40,578 bases of DNA from Lachnospiraceae bacterium (lineage in GTDB: Bacteria; Bacillota; Clostridia; Lachnospirales; Lachnospiraceae): contig JALESO010000037.1 in the NCBI GenBank assembly GCA_022781925.1, positions 1-40,578 of the forward strand, in the 5' to 3' direction. Of the stretch, positions 1,665-9,851 are shown piece by piece. How positions within the stretch are numbered: position 1 is the first letter of the stretch; each line of letters opens with the position of its first letter. The position numbers and the translations under genes were made by a program. The notes beneath the pieces were generated by a model that was not told where the DNA came from, ran no database searches, and saw nothing but the letters and a program-made list of their open reading frames with translations.

Positions 1665-3473
1665 CTATAACCCCTTCAGGTATTTTTCTACATTCCGATA
1701 CTCAATTCCATTATCTAATGCTGTTTCTTTTCCACGATATAAGACACAACGTTTTTTTATACTGCCGAATCTTTTTTCTGTCTGCTGCAATTTTTCCTCA
1801 TCCACCAGATACCGCATTTGTGCTGGAACGATCTGATCACTGTGTTTTATTTCATAACATTCACAATTATTTTCTTTTGCATCATAAATTACCATGTCAT
1901 ACTCGCCAACAGCAAATGTCAGTTTGAACACTCTTTTTTGCTTCTTTGCCGATTTATAAGTTTCCAGCAAAACAATTTCTTCCATCATTCGTCCACGTAC
2001 TTCTTCTAAAATACGCTCAGAAACCATATTTTTTTCGTATTCACTTAACGACGCAAAAAGTTCATCTTTAGTAAGTGCATGCACAAGTGCCTGGGCCTGG
2101 CAATACCGCATTCCAGGTTGTGTGAAAATAATATTTTCCAGCGGTTCTGCACCCGGAACAATTGTCTCTTCCGGAATATCCACAATCAGATCCAGTGCTT
2201 TCAGATATTCTTTGATTTCCTCCACATGTACATTAGTGATACCAACAGACTGCTCTTCTTTATTCCGAATATCCAACAAACTCATCAAGCGTTTTGTCAC
2301 CGCTTCCGTATCAATTTTGTCTAAAATATCACTGCGCCGATCAGGATTTCGGTCTTTTCTTAGCACATCTGCCGCTGAACCAAAATCATGTGATTTGAAT
2401 TTGCTGAGCAGAATCCGAAGCAAAAAACGGTGGTTCATATCTTCAATAATTCGATTAATCGCTCCTGTCAATTCACCTGCCTCATACAGTGACTGTAAAT
2501 GTCGGAAATATTCTCCATCCTGACAGCAATTTAAGGAATGCTGAATATTTTTGCAGATAGCGGTATCAATATATCTTCTGGTAGACTCATCATCACGAAA
2601 TAATGCATCTTCTGCATTCACATCGTCATCATCAAATGCCAATTCTCCTGCCCGCAGCGTTCCTCCATAGCGGATATATTCATCAATACTGTCAATTCCA
2701 AGCAGACGGCTGTGTTCCCTGAATGGAATAAATGTCGTATGAATGGTAATGGCACGATCATATAATTCCTGATGCAGTGCAAACCAGAACCCCAGTGAAT
2801 CCGTACCAGACAAAACGATTTTCATTCCCTGAACCGCATAAACATCCGAAAACAATGCTGCCGAATCAATAAAATCCGACATCAGCGTTACTTCATCAAT
2901 AAATACATTCTCATATCCCTGTTCCAGAAGTTTTTCCAGATCCCGGTTCATAGAAGCCATCGTATCTGTTGCCTTCGCTTTGATATATGCTGTTTTGGAT
3001 GCCTGTTCTGATGTCATTTTCAAAACAGCCTGACGAAGCATTGTCGTTTTTCCGGTTCGACGTAAGCCAAAAACAAGACACACCCGATCCGTTTCATCAC
3101 TTTCCAAAAACTGCTGCAATTGTTTAAAACAATCACGTTCCTGCCAGTTTTTCACACCTTTTGTCATTGCAAGAAGGCGCTGACCAGTCACAACAGAAGT
3201 TTCAAATTTTATTTCTTCCACTGCCGGTGCCGGTTCGCTGCTATAAAAATCTTTCAATTCACGCAGTTCTTCCTGTAATTGTTTCCGACGCTCTACCCCG
3301 GCAAAAATCTGCTCCCGTTCTTTCACTTTTATATATTTACTTTTACTTTTTCCGTTTTCTGTCCATTGCAAATAAGGCTGCTGTTTTCCGTTTATTTTTT
3401 TGATGTTTATGGTGCCCTGTGGCAAAACGGCGATTTCCCGTTCCAATTCTTTTATTCGCTTATAAATGTCCAT
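1665..3473 (-). CDS. AAA ATPase with C-terminal nuclease-like domain
   Basis: A 602-residue ATP-binding protein of the archaeal-ATPase/DUF4143-like class often found as orphan accessory genes; the cellular role is unknown. Visible: an N-terminal coiled-coil-like segment (about residues 1-75), Walker A GLRRTGKTT (about 150), Walker B-like NVFIDEV, a sensor-like LSGTDS, a helical middle, and a C-terminal region with GEYDMVIYD followed by CYEIKHS. The latter pair resembles a PD-(D/E)xK nuclease core. Start choice: an in-frame ATG at 3512 would lie upstream of the -10 box, so it cannot be on the transcript. The ATG at 3473 has GGGGTGA just upstream. It could be a toxin-like, defence-related or mobile-element-related gene; nothing beside it decides. 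Confidence 0.8.
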   Translation of the reverse strand: MDIYKRIKELEREIAVLPQGTINIKKINGKQQPYLQWTENGKSKSKYIKVKEREQIFAGVERRKQLQEELRELKDFYSSEPAPAVEEIKFETSVVTGQRLLAMTKGVKNWQERDCFKQLQQFLESDETDRVCLVFGLRRTGKTTMLRQAVLKMTSEQASKTAYIKAKATDTMASMNRDLEKLLEQGYENVFIDEVTLMSDFIDSAALFSDVYAVQGMKIVLSGTDSLGFWFALHQELYDRAITIHTTFIPFREHSRLLGIDSIDEYIRYGGTLRAGELAFDDDDVNAEDALFRDDESTRRYIDTAICKNIQHSLNCCQDGEYFRHLQSLYEAGELTGAINRIIEDMNHRFLLRILLSKFKSHDFGSAADVLRKDRNPDRRSDILDKIDTEAVTKRLMSLLDIRNKEEQSVGITNVHVEEIKEYLKALDLIVDIPEETIVPGAEPLENIIFTQPGMRYCQAQALVHALTKDELFASLSEYEKNMVSERILEEVRGRMMEEIVLLETYKSAKKQKRVFKLTFAVGEYDMVIYDAKENNCECYEIKHSDQIVPAQMRYLVDEEKLQQTEKRFGSIKKRCVLYRGKETALDNGIEYRNVEKYLKGL

Positions 3474-3492
3474 GCAATCACCCCGTTTCCTA

Positions 3493-3538
3493 CATAACCC
3501 ATTATAACCCATTTTTTATTTTCTATCAATGGGTTATG
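3493..3538 (-). promoter_or_regulatory. Promoter embedded in TAACCCAT repeats
   Basis: On the minus strand TTGATA (3524-3529) and TATAAT (3501-3506) are spaced 17 bases apart. The promoter is overlaid by three copies of one motif. In plus-strand terms, CATAACCCAT is at 3493-3502, TATAACCCAT at 3503-3512, and the inverted copy ATGGGTTATG at 3529-3538. Copies cover both promoter boxes, so a repressor binding them would block transcription. The regulator is not identified; autoregulation by the ATPase gene or an unlinked regulator are both possible. Confidence 0.65.
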
Positions 3539-4147: not shown

Positions 4148-5581
4148 CTAAGCAAGAAGTTCCTGCAATATTGCATTCACCATCACCGGATTTGCCTTTC
4201 CTTTCATCGCTTTCATGGTCTGGCCAACAAGGAATCCCATGGCTTTCTTCTTACCATTATGGTAATCCTCCACGGACTGTGGATTTTCTGCAATGACTTT
4301 CTCAATGGTCTCTCTCAGAGCGCCCTCGTCATTGACCACCTTCAGTCCTTTTTCTTCGACGTATTTCTCCGGATCGATGTCTGATTTAAACATCTCCTCG
4401 AATACTTCTTTTGCCACGGAACCATTGATGGTGCCAGCATCTACCAGTTCGATCAGGGCAGCCAGATGCTCCGGTGCAAAACAGATTTCCTCTGCTTCCA
4501 TGCTGTTCTCTTTTAACAGACGCATGGTTTCACCCATAAGCCAGTTGGATACTTTTTTCGGCTTGCCACAGATTTTGGTGGTCTCCTCAAACAGATCGGC
4601 CATATGCTTGGTTCCGGTGATGATCTCTGCATCGTAATCCGGAATGTCGTACTCTCTGTGGTAACGCTCCAGTTTCTGCGGACGCAGTTCCGGCTGACGG
4701 CTGCGGATCTCGTTGATCCACTCCTCGGAAATGACGATGGGTGCCAGATCCGGTTCCGGGAAGTAACGGTAATCCTGCGCATCCTCTTTGGAACGCATTG
4801 CATGAGAAGATTCTTTGTTGTCATCCCAGCGACGGGTTTCCTGCACAACTTTTCTTCCCATCTCAAGAAGTTCGATCTGACGTTCCCTCTCACCCTCGAT
4901 GGCATGTGCGATGGCCTTGAAGGAGTTCAGGTTTTTCATCTCGGTACGGGTTCCGAACTTCGTTGAACCAACCTCACGAACAGACAGGTTGACATCGGCA
5001 CGCATGGAACCTTCGTTTAATTTACAGTCGGATGCCCCAAGATACTGAATGGTCTGGCGCAGTGTCTCCAGATAAGCGATCACCTCGTCTGCGGAACGCA
5101 TGTCCGGCTCAGATACGATCTCGATCAGCGGCACACCGGAACGGTTGTAATCCACGATGGAGACGTCCTCCCACTCGTCATGCACCAGTTTACCGGCATC
5201 TTCCTCCATATGGATCTCATGGATGCGCACCTGCTTTTTTCCCGCCGGTGTATCAATCTCCACATAGCCGTTGCGGCAGATCGGCAGATACAGCTGTGAG
5301 ATCTGGTAGTTCTGTGGGTTATCCGGGTAAAAATAGTTTTTCCGGTCAAATTTACTGTATCGGGTAATGCTGCAGTTTGTAGCCAGACCGACTGCCATGG
5401 CATATTCCACCACCTGTTTGTTCAACACCGGAAGGGAACCCGGCATACCGGTACAAACCGGGCAGGTGTGTGTGTTTGGTTTTCCTCCGAACTCTGTGGA
5501 ACAGGAACAGAAGATCTTTGTTTTGGTTGCAAGCTCTACGTGCACTTCCAGTCCGATGACTGTTTCATAATTCTTACTCAT
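4148..5581 (-). CDS. gatB: Asp-tRNA(Asn)/Glu-tRNA(Gln) amidotransferase subunit B
   Basis: GatB binds mischarged tRNA and carries out the kinase/transamidation step of the GatCAB complex, turning Asp-tRNA(Asn) into Asn-tRNA(Asn) and/or Glu-tRNA(Gln) into Gln-tRNA(Gln). The 477-residue length is normal. Visible: the N-terminal VIGLEVHVEL signature, the zinc-ligand cysteines (CSC and CPVC) around residues 25-45, NYFYPDNPQNYQISQ, and the C-terminal GatB/YqeY helical domain ending in GFLVGQTMKAMKGKANP. AAGGAGGA lies six bases before the ATG. It follows gatA by 15 bases and is the last gene of the operon. Confidence 0.97.
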   Translation of the reverse strand: MSKNYETVIGLEVHVELATKTKIFCSCSTEFGGKPNTHTCPVCTGMPGSLPVLNKQVVEYAMAVGLATNCSITRYSKFDRKNYFYPDNPQNYQISQLYLPICRNGYVEIDTPAGKKQVRIHEIHMEEDAGKLVHDEWEDVSIVDYNRSGVPLIEIVSEPDMRSADEVIAYLETLRQTIQYLGASDCKLNEGSMRADVNLSVREVGSTKFGTRTEMKNLNSFKAIAHAIEGERERQIELLEMGRKVVQETRRWDDNKESSHAMRSKEDAQDYRYFPEPDLAPIVISEEWINEIRSRQPELRPQKLERYHREYDIPDYDAEIITGTKHMADLFEETTKICGKPKKVSNWLMGETMRLLKENSMEAEEICFAPEHLAALIELVDAGTINGSVAKEVFEEMFKSDIDPEKYVEEKGLKVVNDEGALRETIEKVIAENPQSVEDYHNGKKKAMGFLVGQTMKAMKGKANPVMVNAILQELLA

Positions 5582-5596: not shown

Positions 5597-7060
5597 CTAC
5601 GCCTGGCTCAGCGGACTGTGCTGATATGGACGCGTCTGCTCAAAACTGTATGCTGCCTGAATGATCTTTTTCTCCTGGAAACAGTCTCCGATCAGCTGTA
5701 AACCGATCGGCAGTCCCTGACTGTCCGTGCCACACGGAAGGGAAATGCCCGGAAGTCCCCCCAGGTTGACGGAGATCGTGTAAATATCGCCCAGATACAT
5801 GCTGATCGGATCCTGCAGGCTCTCGCCAAGCTTTGGTGCCGTGGTCGGTGCTGCCGGTCCGAGGATCATGTCATATTTTGCAAATGCATCGTCAAAGGCT
5901 TTTTTGATCAGCGCTTTGACACGCAGTGCTTTCAGATAATAAGCGTCATAATATCCGGAACTTAAGACGAAAGAACCAAGCATGATTCTTCGTTTTACCT
6001 CAGGTCCAAATCCTTCGGAACGTGATTTTTTATACATGTTATGAAGACCTTCGTATTCTTTGGTACGATAGCCGTATTTCACGCCATCAAAACGTGCCAG
6101 ATTGGAGCTTGCTTCTGCGCAGGCGATAACGTAGTATGCCGGGATCGCATATTTTACAAGACCAAGGTCAAATTCTTCCACGATGGCACCTTTTTCTTCC
6201 AGTACCTTTGCTGCGGCCAGCACAGCATCCTTTACTTCCGGATTTAAACCTTCTCCGAAATAATCTTTCGGGATACCGATGCGCATGCCTTTGACATCGT
6301 CCACCAGTGCAGAAGTAAAATCCGTATTTTCTCTTTTTACGGAAGTAGAATCCTTTTTATCATAAGATGTGATTGCTTCCAGGATCGTTGCACAGTCCGT
6401 CACATCTTTTGCCACCGGTCCGATTTGATCCAGTGATGAACCATAGGCGATCAGTCCGTAACGTGAGACCGTTCCGTAAGTCGGTTTGATACCGGTTACG
6501 CCGCAGAAAGAACTCGGCTGACGTATCGATCCACCGGTGTCAGAACCAAGGGCAAAGGAACACTCCTCTGCTGCCACGGCTGCGCAGGAACCGCCGGAAG
6601 ATCCACCCGGAACATGCTCTGTATTCCACGGATTTTTTGTCTCACCGTAAGCGGAAGTCTCTGTGGTACTTCCCATGGCAAACTCATCCATATTTGTCTT
6701 TCCGATAATGACCGCTCCGGCTTCCTCCAGTTTTTTCACTGCTTCTGCCGTATAGGTCGGTATAAAATTATATAAAATTTTTGAGGAACAGGTGGTCAGA
6801 AGGCCTTCGGTACACATATTATCCTTGATTGCCACCGGAACGCCTGCCAGCGGACCCGTCAGCTCTCCGGCATCGATTTTTGCCTGCACTTCCTTTGCAC
6901 GGGCAAGGGCGCCCTCTTCATCTACCGTCACAAAACTGTGCACCTGTTCTTCTTTTGCGTGTACCGCATCCAGCGCTTCCCGAACGGCAGCTTCCACGGT
7001 CACTTCTTTTGCTTTTATCTTTTTTCCCAGCTCTACTGCTGTCAAACTCATCAAACTCAT
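5597..7060 (-). CDS. gatA: Asp-tRNA(Asn)/Glu-tRNA(Gln) amidotransferase subunit A
   Basis: Amidase-signature glutaminase subunit that releases ammonia from Gln and channels it to GatB. At 487 residues it is normal length. The catalytic Lys sits in VAIKDN, and the Ser-cisSer-Lys triad elements are in the Gly/Ser-rich GGSSGGSCAAVAA and GSDTGGSIRQPSSFCG. Start choice: CGGAGGAC is only two bases before an upstream ATG at 7066 but eight bases before the ATG at 7060, so 7060 is preferred. It begins 17 bases after the end of the GNAT-GatC gene. Confidence 0.97.
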   Translation of the reverse strand: MSLMSLTAVELGKKIKAKEVTVEAAVREALDAVHAKEEQVHSFVTVDEEGALARAKEVQAKIDAGELTGPLAGVPVAIKDNMCTEGLLTTCSSKILYNFIPTYTAEAVKKLEEAGAVIIGKTNMDEFAMGSTTETSAYGETKNPWNTEHVPGGSSGGSCAAVAAEECSFALGSDTGGSIRQPSSFCGVTGIKPTYGTVSRYGLIAYGSSLDQIGPVAKDVTDCATILEAITSYDKKDSTSVKRENTDFTSALVDDVKGMRIGIPKDYFGEGLNPEVKDAVLAAAKVLEEKGAIVEEFDLGLVKYAIPAYYVIACAEASSNLARFDGVKYGYRTKEYEGLHNMYKKSRSEGFGPEVKRRIMLGSFVLSSGYYDAYYLKALRVKALIKKAFDDAFAKYDMILGPAAPTTAPKLGESLQDPISMYLGDIYTISVNLGGLPGISLPCGTDSQGLPIGLQLIGDCFQEKKIIQAAYSFEQTRPYQHSPLSQA

Positions 7061-7077
7061 TTCCATGTCCTCCGTTC

Positions 7078-7995
7078 TTATTCGCCGATTGTCTTCGGTA
7101 CTTTGAATCCGCCGTCTTTCTGCTCCGGAGCATTCTTCAGTGTCGCTTCACTGCCGTCTCCGTTTGTCACAACATCCTCGCGGAATACATTTTCAATCGG
7201 GAATACATGGGACATCGGCTCGATGCCTGTGGTGTCAAGCTCGTTCAAGAGATCGATGTAATCCAGCATATCTTCCATATCTTTTTTCGCTGCTTCTGCT
7301 TCTTCCGGGCTTAACTCCAGTTTTGCCAGAATGCCAACATACTCCATGGTGTCATCGGAAATGACATTTTTCATGGTTCCGTCCTCTGCCATCACTTTTG
7401 TGACAGATGCACCGCTGGTCTGCTCCTCTTCTTCCGGCACTTCCTCCAGTGCCACATGACTGATTTTTGCATAAACAGCAGAATCCACGATGCCCTGATT
7501 GTTTTTTGCGGACTGGCGCAGGGTTCCTTCGTAATCCATGCCTGCTTTTTTCATCACTTCACCGGAATTTGGATTTGCCACATCATGCTGTGCCCAGACA
7601 CGACCGGCTCCAACCTCTGCCATCAGAAAATGGATGACAGCCTCCAAAGCCTCCGTGGTGTAACCCTGATGCCACCAGGATTTTCCGATGCAATAACCAA
7701 TTTCTGCACTCTGAACATCTTCATCCAGCGATACCACGCTGATACTTCCGATGGGCTGCTCGATGTCATTTAATTCAATCGCCCACTGATAAAACTCATT
7801 TTTGCTGTAATCTTCTTCCCACTGCTGCAGAATCTCTGTGGTCTTCTCCACACTTTTGTGTGGCGGCCAGGTCAGATATTTTGTTACTTCCGGATCGCTC
7901 GCCCAGTTGTAATACATATTTTCTGCATCTTCTATTGTAAAACGCCGTAACGTCAGGCGTTCTGTTGCTATGGTCTGTGTTCCTGTATGTCTCAC
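7078..7995 (-). CDS. gatC: Fusion protein: GNAT acetyltransferase + GatC
   Basis: A single 305-residue frame joins two proteins normally separate. Residues 1 to about 175 form a RimJ/RimL-type GNAT N-acetyltransferase (TERLTLRRF start, [17 protein letters not shown] acetyl-CoA loop, [14 protein letters not shown]). A Glu-rich linker (EEVPEEEEQ) follows, and residues 208-305 are a complete GatC ([31 protein letters not shown]). GatC stabilises the GatA-GatB interface. The start is taken as GTG 7995, nine bases after AGGAGG; an upstream in-frame ATG at 8025 overlaps that Shine-Dalgarno. The GatC part has its own ATG at 7374, with GAGGA seven bases upstream, so free GatC may also be made. The GNAT substrate is unknown. 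Confidence 0.93.
7372..7388 (-). promoter_or_regulatory. Possible internal ribosome binding site for free GatC
   Basis: Inside the fusion frame, AGAGGA stands seven bases before an in-frame ATG at 7374, exactly where the GatC domain starts (MKNVISDD). It could give a 98-residue stand-alone GatC alongside the fusion, or be a relic of the ancestral gatC start. Confidence 0.4.
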
Positions 7996-8135: not shown

Positions 8136-9467
8136 TTATGGCTCTAATCTGCTCAGATCTCTCGGGAACAGGGTTGCTTCCCGGACGTTATCTTCTCCGA
8201 TCAGCTGCATGGTCAGACGCTCCATACCGATACCAAGTCCACCGTGTGGCGGCATACCGTATTTGAATGCAGACAGGTAATGCTCCATGCCCTCTGTCTC
8301 CATGCCCCGCTGTGCGATCTTTTCCATTAATTTATCATACTGATGGATACGCTGTCCACCGGTTGTGATCTCCAGACCTTTATAAAGCAGGTCAAAACTT
8401 AAGGTGTAGGTCGGATCTGCCGGATCATCCATGGCATAAAACGGACGTTTCTTGGATGGATAATGTGTGACAAATACAAAATCACTGCCAAATTCTTCTT
8501 TTGCATACTGACCGATCAGATGCTCCTCCTCCGGCTCCAGGTCGTATGGATTGCGGAACTGTCTGTCGTATTTTTCTGCCACGCGCTGTTTTGCCTCATC
8601 AAAACGGATCGCCGGGATCTGGCTTACATCCGGAAGCTCGATCTGTAAAATATCCAGTTCTTTCGCATAATCTTTTTTCAGTAACTCCATGGTATACTGC
8701 AAAAATCCGGTCTCCATGGCCATGATATCTTCGAATCCGTCAATGTATCCCATCTCGAAATCAAGGCTGTTATATTCGTTCAAATGGCGTTTTGTGTTGT
8801 GTTTTTCCGCACGAAAAACCGGTGCTGTCTCAAAGACTCTGTCAAACACGCCCACCATCATCTGTTTGTAAAACTGTGGGCTCTGCTGCAGGATCGCAGG
8901 TCTGTGGAAATACTCCAGTTTAAACAGGTTGGCTCCGCCCTCGGCACTTTTTGCACCAAGCTTTGGTGTGTGGATCTCTGTAAAACCCTGGCTGTAAAGG
9001 AAATCACGGAAGCCTCTCACGATACCTTCCTGAATCCGGAAAGTAGCACGCTCCCTGATGTTTCGCAGGGCTACGGCACGGTGGTTTAATTTGGCTTCCA
9101 AGGAAGTGTTCATCTTCCATTTTGCGATTGGAAGCGGCAGGCTTTCTGCCGGCTCGGAAAGGATTTTGACCTCTTTCATGCGGATCTCGAATCCTCCCGG
9201 CGCACGCTCTTCCTTATTTAATACACCGCTCACCTCGATGGCTGCGCCTTCTTTGAGTTCCTTCAGGTCAATGGCGGTTACGCCTTCTTCATACACGCAC
9301 TGCAGCAGACCTTCTCTTTTTCGCAGGACTACAAAGGCGACTTCACCCATGTCACGCACCGTATGGACGGCTCCGTTGACGCTGATCGTCTGTCCATACA
9401 GGTCAGACGCCAGGATTTCACTGATTTCCATGGTCTCTTTTGGCATTACACCGGTCATCATTTTCAT
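8136..9467 (-). CDS. aspS: Archaeal-type, probably non-discriminating aspartyl-tRNA synthetase
   Basis: Class II synthetase that charges tRNA(Asp), and if non-discriminating also tRNA(Asn), with Asp. At 443 residues it is the short archaeal/AspRS2 type without the bacterial GAD insertion. Visible: an N-terminal OB fold, motif 2 FRAEKHNTKRHLNE and motif 3 GLGIGMERL. By my alignment to Thermococcus AspRS, its discriminating Trp26 and Lys85 correspond to His35 and Pro90 here, the pair associated with non-discriminating enzymes. ATG 9467 is chosen over GTG 9479, which overlaps the AAAGGAG. It is the first gene behind a T-box leader and is followed by GNAT-gatC, gatA and gatB, which fits indirect Asn-tRNA synthesis. 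Confidence 0.93.
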   Translation of the reverse strand: MKMMTGVMPKETMEISEILASDLYGQTISVNGAVHTVRDMGEVAFVVLRKREGLLQCVYEEGVTAIDLKELKEGAAIEVSGVLNKEERAPGGFEIRMKEVKILSEPAESLPLPIAKWKMNTSLEAKLNHRAVALRNIRERATFRIQEGIVRGFRDFLYSQGFTEIHTPKLGAKSAEGGANLFKLEYFHRPAILQQSPQFYKQMMVGVFDRVFETAPVFRAEKHNTKRHLNEYNSLDFEMGYIDGFEDIMAMETGFLQYTMELLKKDYAKELDILQIELPDVSQIPAIRFDEAKQRVAEKYDRQFRNPYDLEPEEEHLIGQYAKEEFGSDFVFVTHYPSKKRPFYAMDDPADPTYTLSFDLLYKGLEITTGGQRIHQYDKLMEKIAQRGMETEGMEHYLSAFKYGMPPHGGLGIGMERLTMQLIGEDNVREATLFPRDLSRLEP

Positions 9468-9479
9468 TGTTTCGTACAC

Positions 9480-9851
9480 TCCTTTTGCATAAAATGTTGT
9501 AAGGTGCGGGACGGAATTATTGTGAAAAAGACAAAAATCGCCCTAAGGATACGTCTTTGTATCCCAGGACGAAATAATGTTCTTTTATATTATTCCGCGG
9601 TACCACCCGCATTGAGAAAAACAATACTACAAAACACTCATGATCTGTGTCTTTCCCCACTCAGGCACGTAACGTGTGCGATCCGTACAGACCTACTGAA
9701 ATTCATAATGATATACATGAATCTCTCATTCAATCTGTCTGCTCCAGAGCGTTCCCTTTATCTCCTCCGCCAAACAGCGCTCTCAGTCGGTGACGCCGTA
9801 TTCCTGTCGGTTTCTGAAGACAAGAGTCTCCTTCTACACATTTGCTCATGA
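9480..9851 (-). ncRNA. T-box leader controlling aspS-gatCAB
   Basis: A tRNA-sensing leader that senses uncharged tRNA. The T-box sequence GGGTGGTACCGCGG is exact on the minus strand (9595-9608). It is followed by an intrinsic terminator (9532-9571). Upstream, a long Stem I region includes AGAGCG/CGCTCT. The specifier is not certain: a GAC (Asp) triplet followed by A at 9737-9739 lies 3' of that stem and is my best candidate, though an Asn specifier cannot be excluded. Leader length from the promoter is about 370 nt. Confidence 0.9.
9532..9571 (-). terminator. T-box leader terminator
   Basis: Minus-strand hairpin CGTCCTGGGATAC...GTATCCTTAGGGCG followed by ATTTTTGTCTTTTT, between the T-box sequence and the aspS start. 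It is the regulated terminator of the leader. Its apex carries AAAGAC. Confidence 0.85.

What the first reader, a model, noticed from the sequence alone, without database searches (positions are those of the whole stretch)
7078..7995. In-frame fusion of a GNAT acetyltransferase to GatC inside the transamidation operon
Seen: one uninterrupted 305-codon frame has a full RimJ/RimL-type GNAT domain, a Glu-rich linker and a full GatC, between aspS and gatA. An AGAGGA plus ATG at the domain boundary (7374) would allow free GatC as well. Known: GatC is normally a separate protein of about 100 residues. Inference: the GNAT domain would sit beside the GatA/GatB interface and could acetylate a GatCAB component, an aminoacyl-tRNA or another partner, or the fusion may only secure co-expression.
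Basis: partly seen in the sequence, partly recalled or inferred. Interest (0 to 1): 0.75.

Follow-up and report, generated by a model that had tools for sequence, protein, structure and literature searches.

The report
Acetyltransferase fused to amidotransferase subunit GatC
In a group of gut bacteria around Eubacterium ramulus, the small subunit of the enzyme that makes asparaginyl-tRNA is joined in one protein to an acetyltransferase, a real and selectively maintained two-headed protein whose second job is not yet known.

Summary
The fusion is real. A 305-codon frame on the minus strand (GTG 7995, stop 7078) joins a RimJ/RimL-type GNAT domain to a complete GatC, between a non-discriminating-type aspS and gatA. 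It is the only GatC found in its assembly. Of 20 same-genus genomes, 16 have a GatC, and all 16 carry the same uninterrupted fusion. It also occurs in Roseburia porci and related MAGs. The GNAT part is under purifying selection (dN/dS 0.03-0.18).

Free GatC from ATG 7374 is not supported as a general mechanism. The codon is present in 5 of 16 genus genes, its Shine-Dalgarno match is no better than synonymous shuffles (114/300), and two fused genes lack any junction start codon.

New here: a T-box-like leader with a probable asparagine specifier precedes aspS. AsnRS, GlnRS, a second AspRS and AsnA make the operon a redundant route. One relative (L135) carries an in-frame deletion scar: its GatC begins with the GNAT start peptide. 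The GNAT is thus an accessory module. Its acceptor is unknown; RimL and MccE are near in fold, but MccE's catalytic Glu is absent in 23 of 23 fused proteins. My literature searches listed no description of this fusion.

The parts
7078..7995 (-). GNAT-GatC fusion gene, 305 aa, GTG start with a strong Shine-Dalgarno
7468..7995 (-). GNAT domain, residues 1-176 (Acetyltransf_3); W31, W71, W108, G111, E115, N141, M148, E156, G157, G168, D171 the same in 23 of 23 fused proteins
   Evidence: predicted with high confidence except residues 161-170
7405..7467 (-). variable Glu-rich linker, residues 177-197; 181-196 predicted with pLDDT under 50
7366..7404 (-). pre-GatC segment, residues 198-210, conserved in the E. 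ramulus group, predicted as parts of two strands at low confidence
7081..7365 (-). GatC core, residues 211-305
8136..9479 (-). aspS of the non-discriminating kind (aspartate--tRNA(Asn) ligase; TIGR00458 421.5 bits, cut-off 368.4)
5597..7066 (-). gatA
4148..5581 (-). gatB
9562..9845 (-). T-box-like leader (RF00230, 57.1 bits, whole model 1-219, below the 93-bit gathering score); GGGTGGTACCGCG at 9608-9596
9751..9753 (-). probable specifier codon AAC (Asn), position read by eye
   Evidence: alignment of 17 leaders: AAC in 15, AAT in 1 (L115), 1 not alignable there (L118)

Best explanation
It is a natural two-domain GatC subunit. The whole protein is translated from the GNAT start as the genome's only GatC. 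The C-terminal part does the ordinary GatC job of wrapping the GatA/GatB interface (shown: domain match, sole GatC found, operon; inferred: assembly). The N-terminal GNAT has the fold of RimL-like acetyl-CoA enzymes (predicted) and hangs on a flexible linker. It most likely carries out its own acetylation of a small primary amine or alpha-amine that is not required for transamidation itself (inferred). The fusion puts it at 1:1 with GatCAB and under the same control as the second, redundant Asp-tRNA(Asn)-to-Asn-tRNA(Asn) route; a T-box-like leader with an asparagine codon is present, its control is inferred. The GNAT is an accessory module that can be lost: in one relative an in-frame deletion removed it and left GatC starting from the GNAT's first seven residues.
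For: Only GatC: 1 match in G000 and 1 in each of the 16 of 20 same-genus genomes that have any, all in open frames of 305-345 aa. GNAT under purifying selection: dN/dS 0.026-0.182 in the 10 of 11 pairs that could be computed. No conserved internal start. GNAT predicted with block pLDDT of 88 or more except residues 161-170; the best fold matches are GNATs, among them RimL, RimJ, MccE, bleomycin and spermidine acetyltransferases. Accessory: the L135 GatC begins MNHLGTK, and its 15-nt CATTTAGGAACAAAA is otherwise found, in all loci fetched by then, only at GNAT starts (L038/L203, L105, L126). Redundant route: AsnS, GlnS, GltX, bacterial AspS and AsnA in the same genome, each over its cut-off. 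T-box-like leader with an Asn codon. The same GNAT type is fused elsewhere to unrelated partners (FlK thioesterase, glyoxalase-like, second GNAT), which fits a module with its own activity.
Against: No activity or substrate is shown. Ser144, which aligns at low identity with the general acid of MccE and is Ser in 34 of 34 standalone relatives, is Ala in 9 of 23 fused proteins, so catalysis may be weakened in one clade. The GatC part was modelled with low confidence because GatA was absent, so docking is untested. Two fused genes have a strong internal Shine-Dalgarno plus ATG (L118, L120: -11.7 kcal/mol). The T-box hit is below Rfam's gathering score; the motif was not found for 6 of 23 fused loci, of which 4 hold little upstream sequence but L122 and L124 hold 5.6 kb. 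PMC4206432 (passage) suggests that GatCAB kept beside AsnRS, GlnRS and an Asn synthetase may be vestigial.
Confidence: 0.55

Rival explanations
1. In-pathway protection: the GNAT acetylates the alpha-amine of aspartyl-adenylate-like molecules (escaped intermediates or antibiotic analogues, as RimL and MccE do for processed microcin C) and so shields the AspRS-GatCAB route to which it is tethered.
Against: The general base Glu of MccE (E572) aligns with residue 163, which is Gly, Asp, Ala or Leu in the 23 fused and never Glu in the 34 standalone relatives. W43 and W59 are Trp in 34 of 34 standalone relatives, so they are not specific to the fusion. RimL score 40 bits, cut-off 184.
Confidence: 0.2
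2. Hitchhiker in decay: the GNAT was captured by chance in the operon, survives because it does not hurt, and is being inactivated and deleted.
For: In-frame deletion scar in L135; 5 unfused GatCs inside the 25-row clade that holds 20 fused ones; Ser144 to Ala in 9 of 23; the redundancy of the pathway and the suggestion that such GatCAB may be vestigial (PMC4206432, passage).
Against: Purifying selection on the GNAT in each of the 10 computable pairs, including pairs inside the Ala144 clade (L115-L117 0.026). No stop or frameshift in any fused GNAT examined, and retention in 16 of the 16 genus members with a GatC.
Confidence: 0.17
3. Two products: full-length fusion plus free GatC from an internal start, so that the fusion is only a translational arrangement.
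For: AGAGGA plus ATG 7374 (-7.3 kcal/mol) in the window; -11.7 in L118 and L120.
Against: ATG 7374 in 5 of 16 genus genes and 6 of the 23 genes; its strength is reached by 114 of 300 synonymous shuffles; L105 and L130 have no start codon in the junction, and 4 of 23 have no ATG within 22 codons.
Confidence: 0.08

Closest known systems
Bacterial GatC (TIGR00135 / PF02686)
   Same: Full domain, over both cut-offs, in an aspS-gatC-gatA-gatB operon
   Different: Carries an N-terminal enzyme domain; standalone relatives are about 100 aa
Yeast mitochondrial GatF (GatC-like subunit with an N-terminal extension on GatA)
   Same: A GatC-like part with an added N-terminal part; PMC4027206 (passages) says this was not seen in any bacterial GatCAB structure
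   Different: The extension of GatF is a GatA-binding segment, not described as an enzyme
RimL / RimJ / MccE acetyltransferases
   Same: Acetyltransf_3-type fold, acetyl-CoA loop residues, a Trp aligned with the MccE adenine-stacking residue
   Different: Far below the RimL and RimJ equivalog cut-offs; MccE catalytic Glu absent; tethered to GatC
Other GatC fusions: AspRS-GatC family NF009460 (listed); GatC-GatA mutant of Mycobacterium smegmatis (PMC7541841, passages)
   Same: GatC in one chain with a partner
   Different: Different partner; the mycobacterial one was selected in the laboratory and mistranslates
[quoted passage not shown] paper not held)
   Same: T-box control of a redundant tRNA-dependent Asn route
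   Different: Whether its GatC carries a GNAT was not checked

Membership tests
GatC | Score over the curated cut-offs | tested here: met
   TIGR00135 89.9 of 47.1; PF02686 81.5 of 23
GatC | Encoded with gatA and gatB, no other GatC in the genome | tested here: met
   assembly 91% complete
GatC | Assembles with GatA and GatB | not testable with these tools
   only the fusion alone was modelled
GNAT, Acetyltransf_3 (PF13302) | Profile score and fold | tested here: met
GNAT, Acetyltransf_3 (PF13302) | Acetyl-CoA-dependent activity | not testable with these tools
   W108, G111, E115 of the binding loop (loop recalled) the same in 23 of 23
RimL (NF007539) | Equivalog cut-off 184 bits | tested here: not met
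   40 bits
RimJ (NF008072) | Equivalog cut-off 190 bits | tested here: not met
   28 bits
MccE-type acetyltransferase | General base Glu (E572) | tested here: not met
   aligned residue 163 is Glu in 0 of 23; alignment of low identity
MccE-type acetyltransferase | General acid Ser (S553) | tested here: inconclusive
   S144 in 14 of 23 fused, Ala in 9
Non-discriminating AspRS (TIGR00458) | Curated cut-off | tested here: met
   421.5 of 368.4 bits; tRNA specificity itself not testable
T-box leader (RF00230) | Gathering score 93 bits | tested here: not met
   57.1 bits, E 1.9e-10, whole model matched; called T-box-like here
T-box leader (RF00230) | Specifier codon that matches the downstream pathway | tested here: inconclusive
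   AAC in 15 of 17 and AAT in 1 of 17; position read by eye
AspRS-GatC fusion (NF009460) | AspRS and GatC in one frame | tested here: not met
   aspS and the fusion are separate genes

The most novel reading that the evidence does not exclude
A transamidosome with a built-in acetyltransferase: the tethered GNAT N-acetylates aspartyl-adenylate or Asp-tRNA(Asn) that escapes amidation, giving a quality-control or self-protection step in tRNA-dependent asparagine synthesis that switches on with asparagine starvation.
Probability: 0.13. Interest if true: 0.8.

Novelty: new variant of a known kind. Interest (0 to 1): 0.5.

Why it matters
GatC is described as a small assembly subunit. Here it is stably used as an anchor for an enzyme domain in a translation complex, across a clade of gut bacteria. 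The GNAT was met beside gatC only in the fused form (20 of 80 genome-contig loci fused, none of the other 60 with a GNAT in the DNA held), and one natural in-frame deletion exists (L135). The system therefore offers a ready-made comparison, with and without GNAT, to ask what an acetyltransferase can do beside a transamidosome.

Tried and rejected
GatC in 554- and 577-aa frames (G352, G052) looked like AspRS-GatC fusions. Reading the DNA showed a stop in front of GatC (frames of 103 aa): not fusions. L134, L150, L183 and L190 looked like partial GNAT-GatC matches; all are standalone GatCs in frames of 100-154 aa.

The first translations of genome-search loci were wrong for minus-strand matches because those loci are not turned; repeated correctly.

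Free GatC by internal initiation: rejected as a conserved mechanism. For fairness: 7 of the 19 genes with a junction ATG reach -7 kcal/mol, against 21 of 104 in-frame ATGs inside the GNAT, and three more have a GTG at -7.7 or stronger (L117, L127, L128).

Single origin: in the GNAT tree one fused clade is not rejected (p-AU 0.28). In the GatC+GatA tree, made with the simpler model, it is (0.017 for all fused, 0.0013 for the main 20). I cannot tell independent fusions from one capture with transfers and losses. Rows dropped: L019, L020 (long branches), L110, L048 (duplicates) from the GNAT tree; L119, L141, L185 (no full gatA) from the GatC+GatA tree.

L132 (VEDLKTK before GatC) may be a second deletion scar, but the likeness is weak and I do not count it.

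Neighbours of standalone GNATs (10 ORFs from L203-L208, one of them the GNAT itself) showed no common theme.

Distribution limits: samples of 396 family, 392 order and 391 class genomes overlap, and their match tables were cut or thresholded.

Print: the searches listed no paper on a GNAT-GatC fusion by title or abstract; the library holds open-licence PMC papers only, and I read passages of five papers at most.

Full report
What is there. The finding's coordinates hold, on the minus strand. GTG 7995 to the stop at 7078 encodes 305 residues. Pfam finds Acetyltransf_3 and GatC, both far over their cut-offs, and NCBIfam finds gatC over its equivalog cut-off. The gene order is aspS, fusion, gatA, gatB. 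It is the only GatC found in the 2.93-Mb assembly, 91% complete. The nearest named genomes are Eubacterium ramulus strain 21 and ATCC 29099, at 96 and 93% identity of the fusion protein.

It is conserved. Of 20 genomes of the genus (own included), 16 have a GatC and all 16 have it as this fusion, with no stop, at 62-100% identity. Of the 4 without a GatC, 3 also lack GatB; in the fourth (G017) the contig begins inside gatA. Outside the genus the fusion occurs in G065, in G685 and G698 of another genus whose member G715 has a standalone GatC, and in Roseburia porci and several MAGs named Roseburia, Eubacterium or Lachnospiraceae. Of the 80 best genome-contig loci, 20 have a GNAT in the operon, and in all 20 it is in frame with GatC; none of the other 60 shows a GNAT beside gatC in the DNA held. 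In the class sample of 391 genomes, 13 had a match at E up to 1e-70: the own fusion and 12 that cover the GNAT part only.

Both halves are under selection. For 11 pairs of fused genes the GNAT dN/dS could be computed in 10 and is 0.026-0.182 (the highest in a pair with saturated dS). GatC is lower in 8 of the 9 pairs where both could be computed; the exception is L120-L121. The linker is variable, and the 13 residues before GatC are conserved in the genus. AlphaFold2 gives the GNAT with block pLDDT of 88 or more except residues 161-170, the linker 181-196 below 50, two weak strands at 198-202 and 208-212, and GatC with low confidence on its own.

The internal start. ATG 7374 (residue 208) exists with AGAGGA before it, but 11 of 16 same-genus genes have a CTN codon there. 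The computed match is -7.3 kcal/mol against -10.2 for the true start, and 114 of 300 synonymous shuffles do as well. L105 and L130 have no ATG, GTG or TTG at all in the junction. L118 and L120 do have a strong candidate (-11.7) at another codon. Internal starts may exist in single species but do not explain the fusion.

Origin and loss. The fused GNATs fall in two neighbouring groups; one clade is not rejected (p-AU 0.28). By GatC plus GatA the fused genomes are not one clade (p-AU 0.017), and L130 and L131 lie far from the main group, with GatC parts closest to standalone GatCs. So the arrangement was either made more than once with the same kind of GNAT, or moved and lost. Loss is documented. 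In L135, which sits beside E. ramulus in the tree with modest support (86/78) and a long branch, GatC starts MNHLGTKVVDENGVKHNTISDETMEYV. The first seven residues are a GNAT start, and the 15-nt CATTTAGGAACAAAA within it is found elsewhere, in all loci fetched by then, only at GNAT starts (L038/L203, L105, L126). The following residues resemble the pre-GatC segment of fused relatives. I read this as an in-frame deletion of the GNAT from a fused ancestor; the GNAT is then not needed for the operon to persist.

The pathway. aspS is of the non-discriminating kind. The same genome also has AsnRS, GlnRS, GluRS, a bacterial-type AspRS and AsnA, each over its cut-off; the AsnB family gave only a 57-position fragment match. 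GatCAB is therefore redundant here. Deinococcus and Thermus likewise carry AsnRS, GlnRS and GatCAB and use an extra archaeal-type AspRS to make asparagine on tRNA; the same paper suggests that GatCAB kept beside an Asn synthetase, AsnRS and GlnRS may be vestigial (PMC4206432, passages). A T-box-like leader lies at 9845-9562, below Rfam's gathering score, with the probable specifier AAC. Over 17 fused-gene leaders the codon is AAC in 15, AAT (also asparagine) in L115, and not alignable in L118. The motif was found upstream in 17 of 23 fused loci and in 45 of 60 unfused genome-contig loci, so it belongs to the operon and not to the fusion.

Reading. The best-supported view is a bifunctional GatC: standard GatC plus an accessory acetyltransferase that shares its expression and place. 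Whether it acts inside the pathway is open; the in-pathway idea has attractive context but fails the catalytic-residue test. I rate the find as real, not described in what my searches listed, and of middling interest until a substrate is known.

Noticed in passing
window 9562-9845 (-): T-box-like leader with a probable Asn specifier in front of aspS, below Rfam's gathering score but with the T-box sequence intact.
   Followed up: yes
L135 4986-5324 (+): Standalone GatC that begins with the GNAT start peptide: an in-frame deletion scar.
   Followed up: yes
L193, L195, L108, L041: The same GNAT type fused in frame to an FlK-type thioesterase, a glyoxalase-like domain or a second GNAT.
   Followed up: partly
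L115-L121, L124, L125: Nine fused GNATs have Ala in place of a Ser that is the same in 34 of 34 standalone relatives.
   Followed up: partly
L130 3189-4967 (+): A fused operon with a bacterial-type AspRS (592 aa) in front instead of the non-discriminating archaeal type seen in the other fused operons where aspS is held.
   Followed up: no
window 1665-3512 (-): 615-aa protein with an AAA_14 / nSTAND-like ATPase domain downstream of gatB.
   Followed up: no
L132, 5' end of gatC: GatC preceded by VEDLKTK, possibly a second, more worn GNAT deletion scar.
   Followed up: partly
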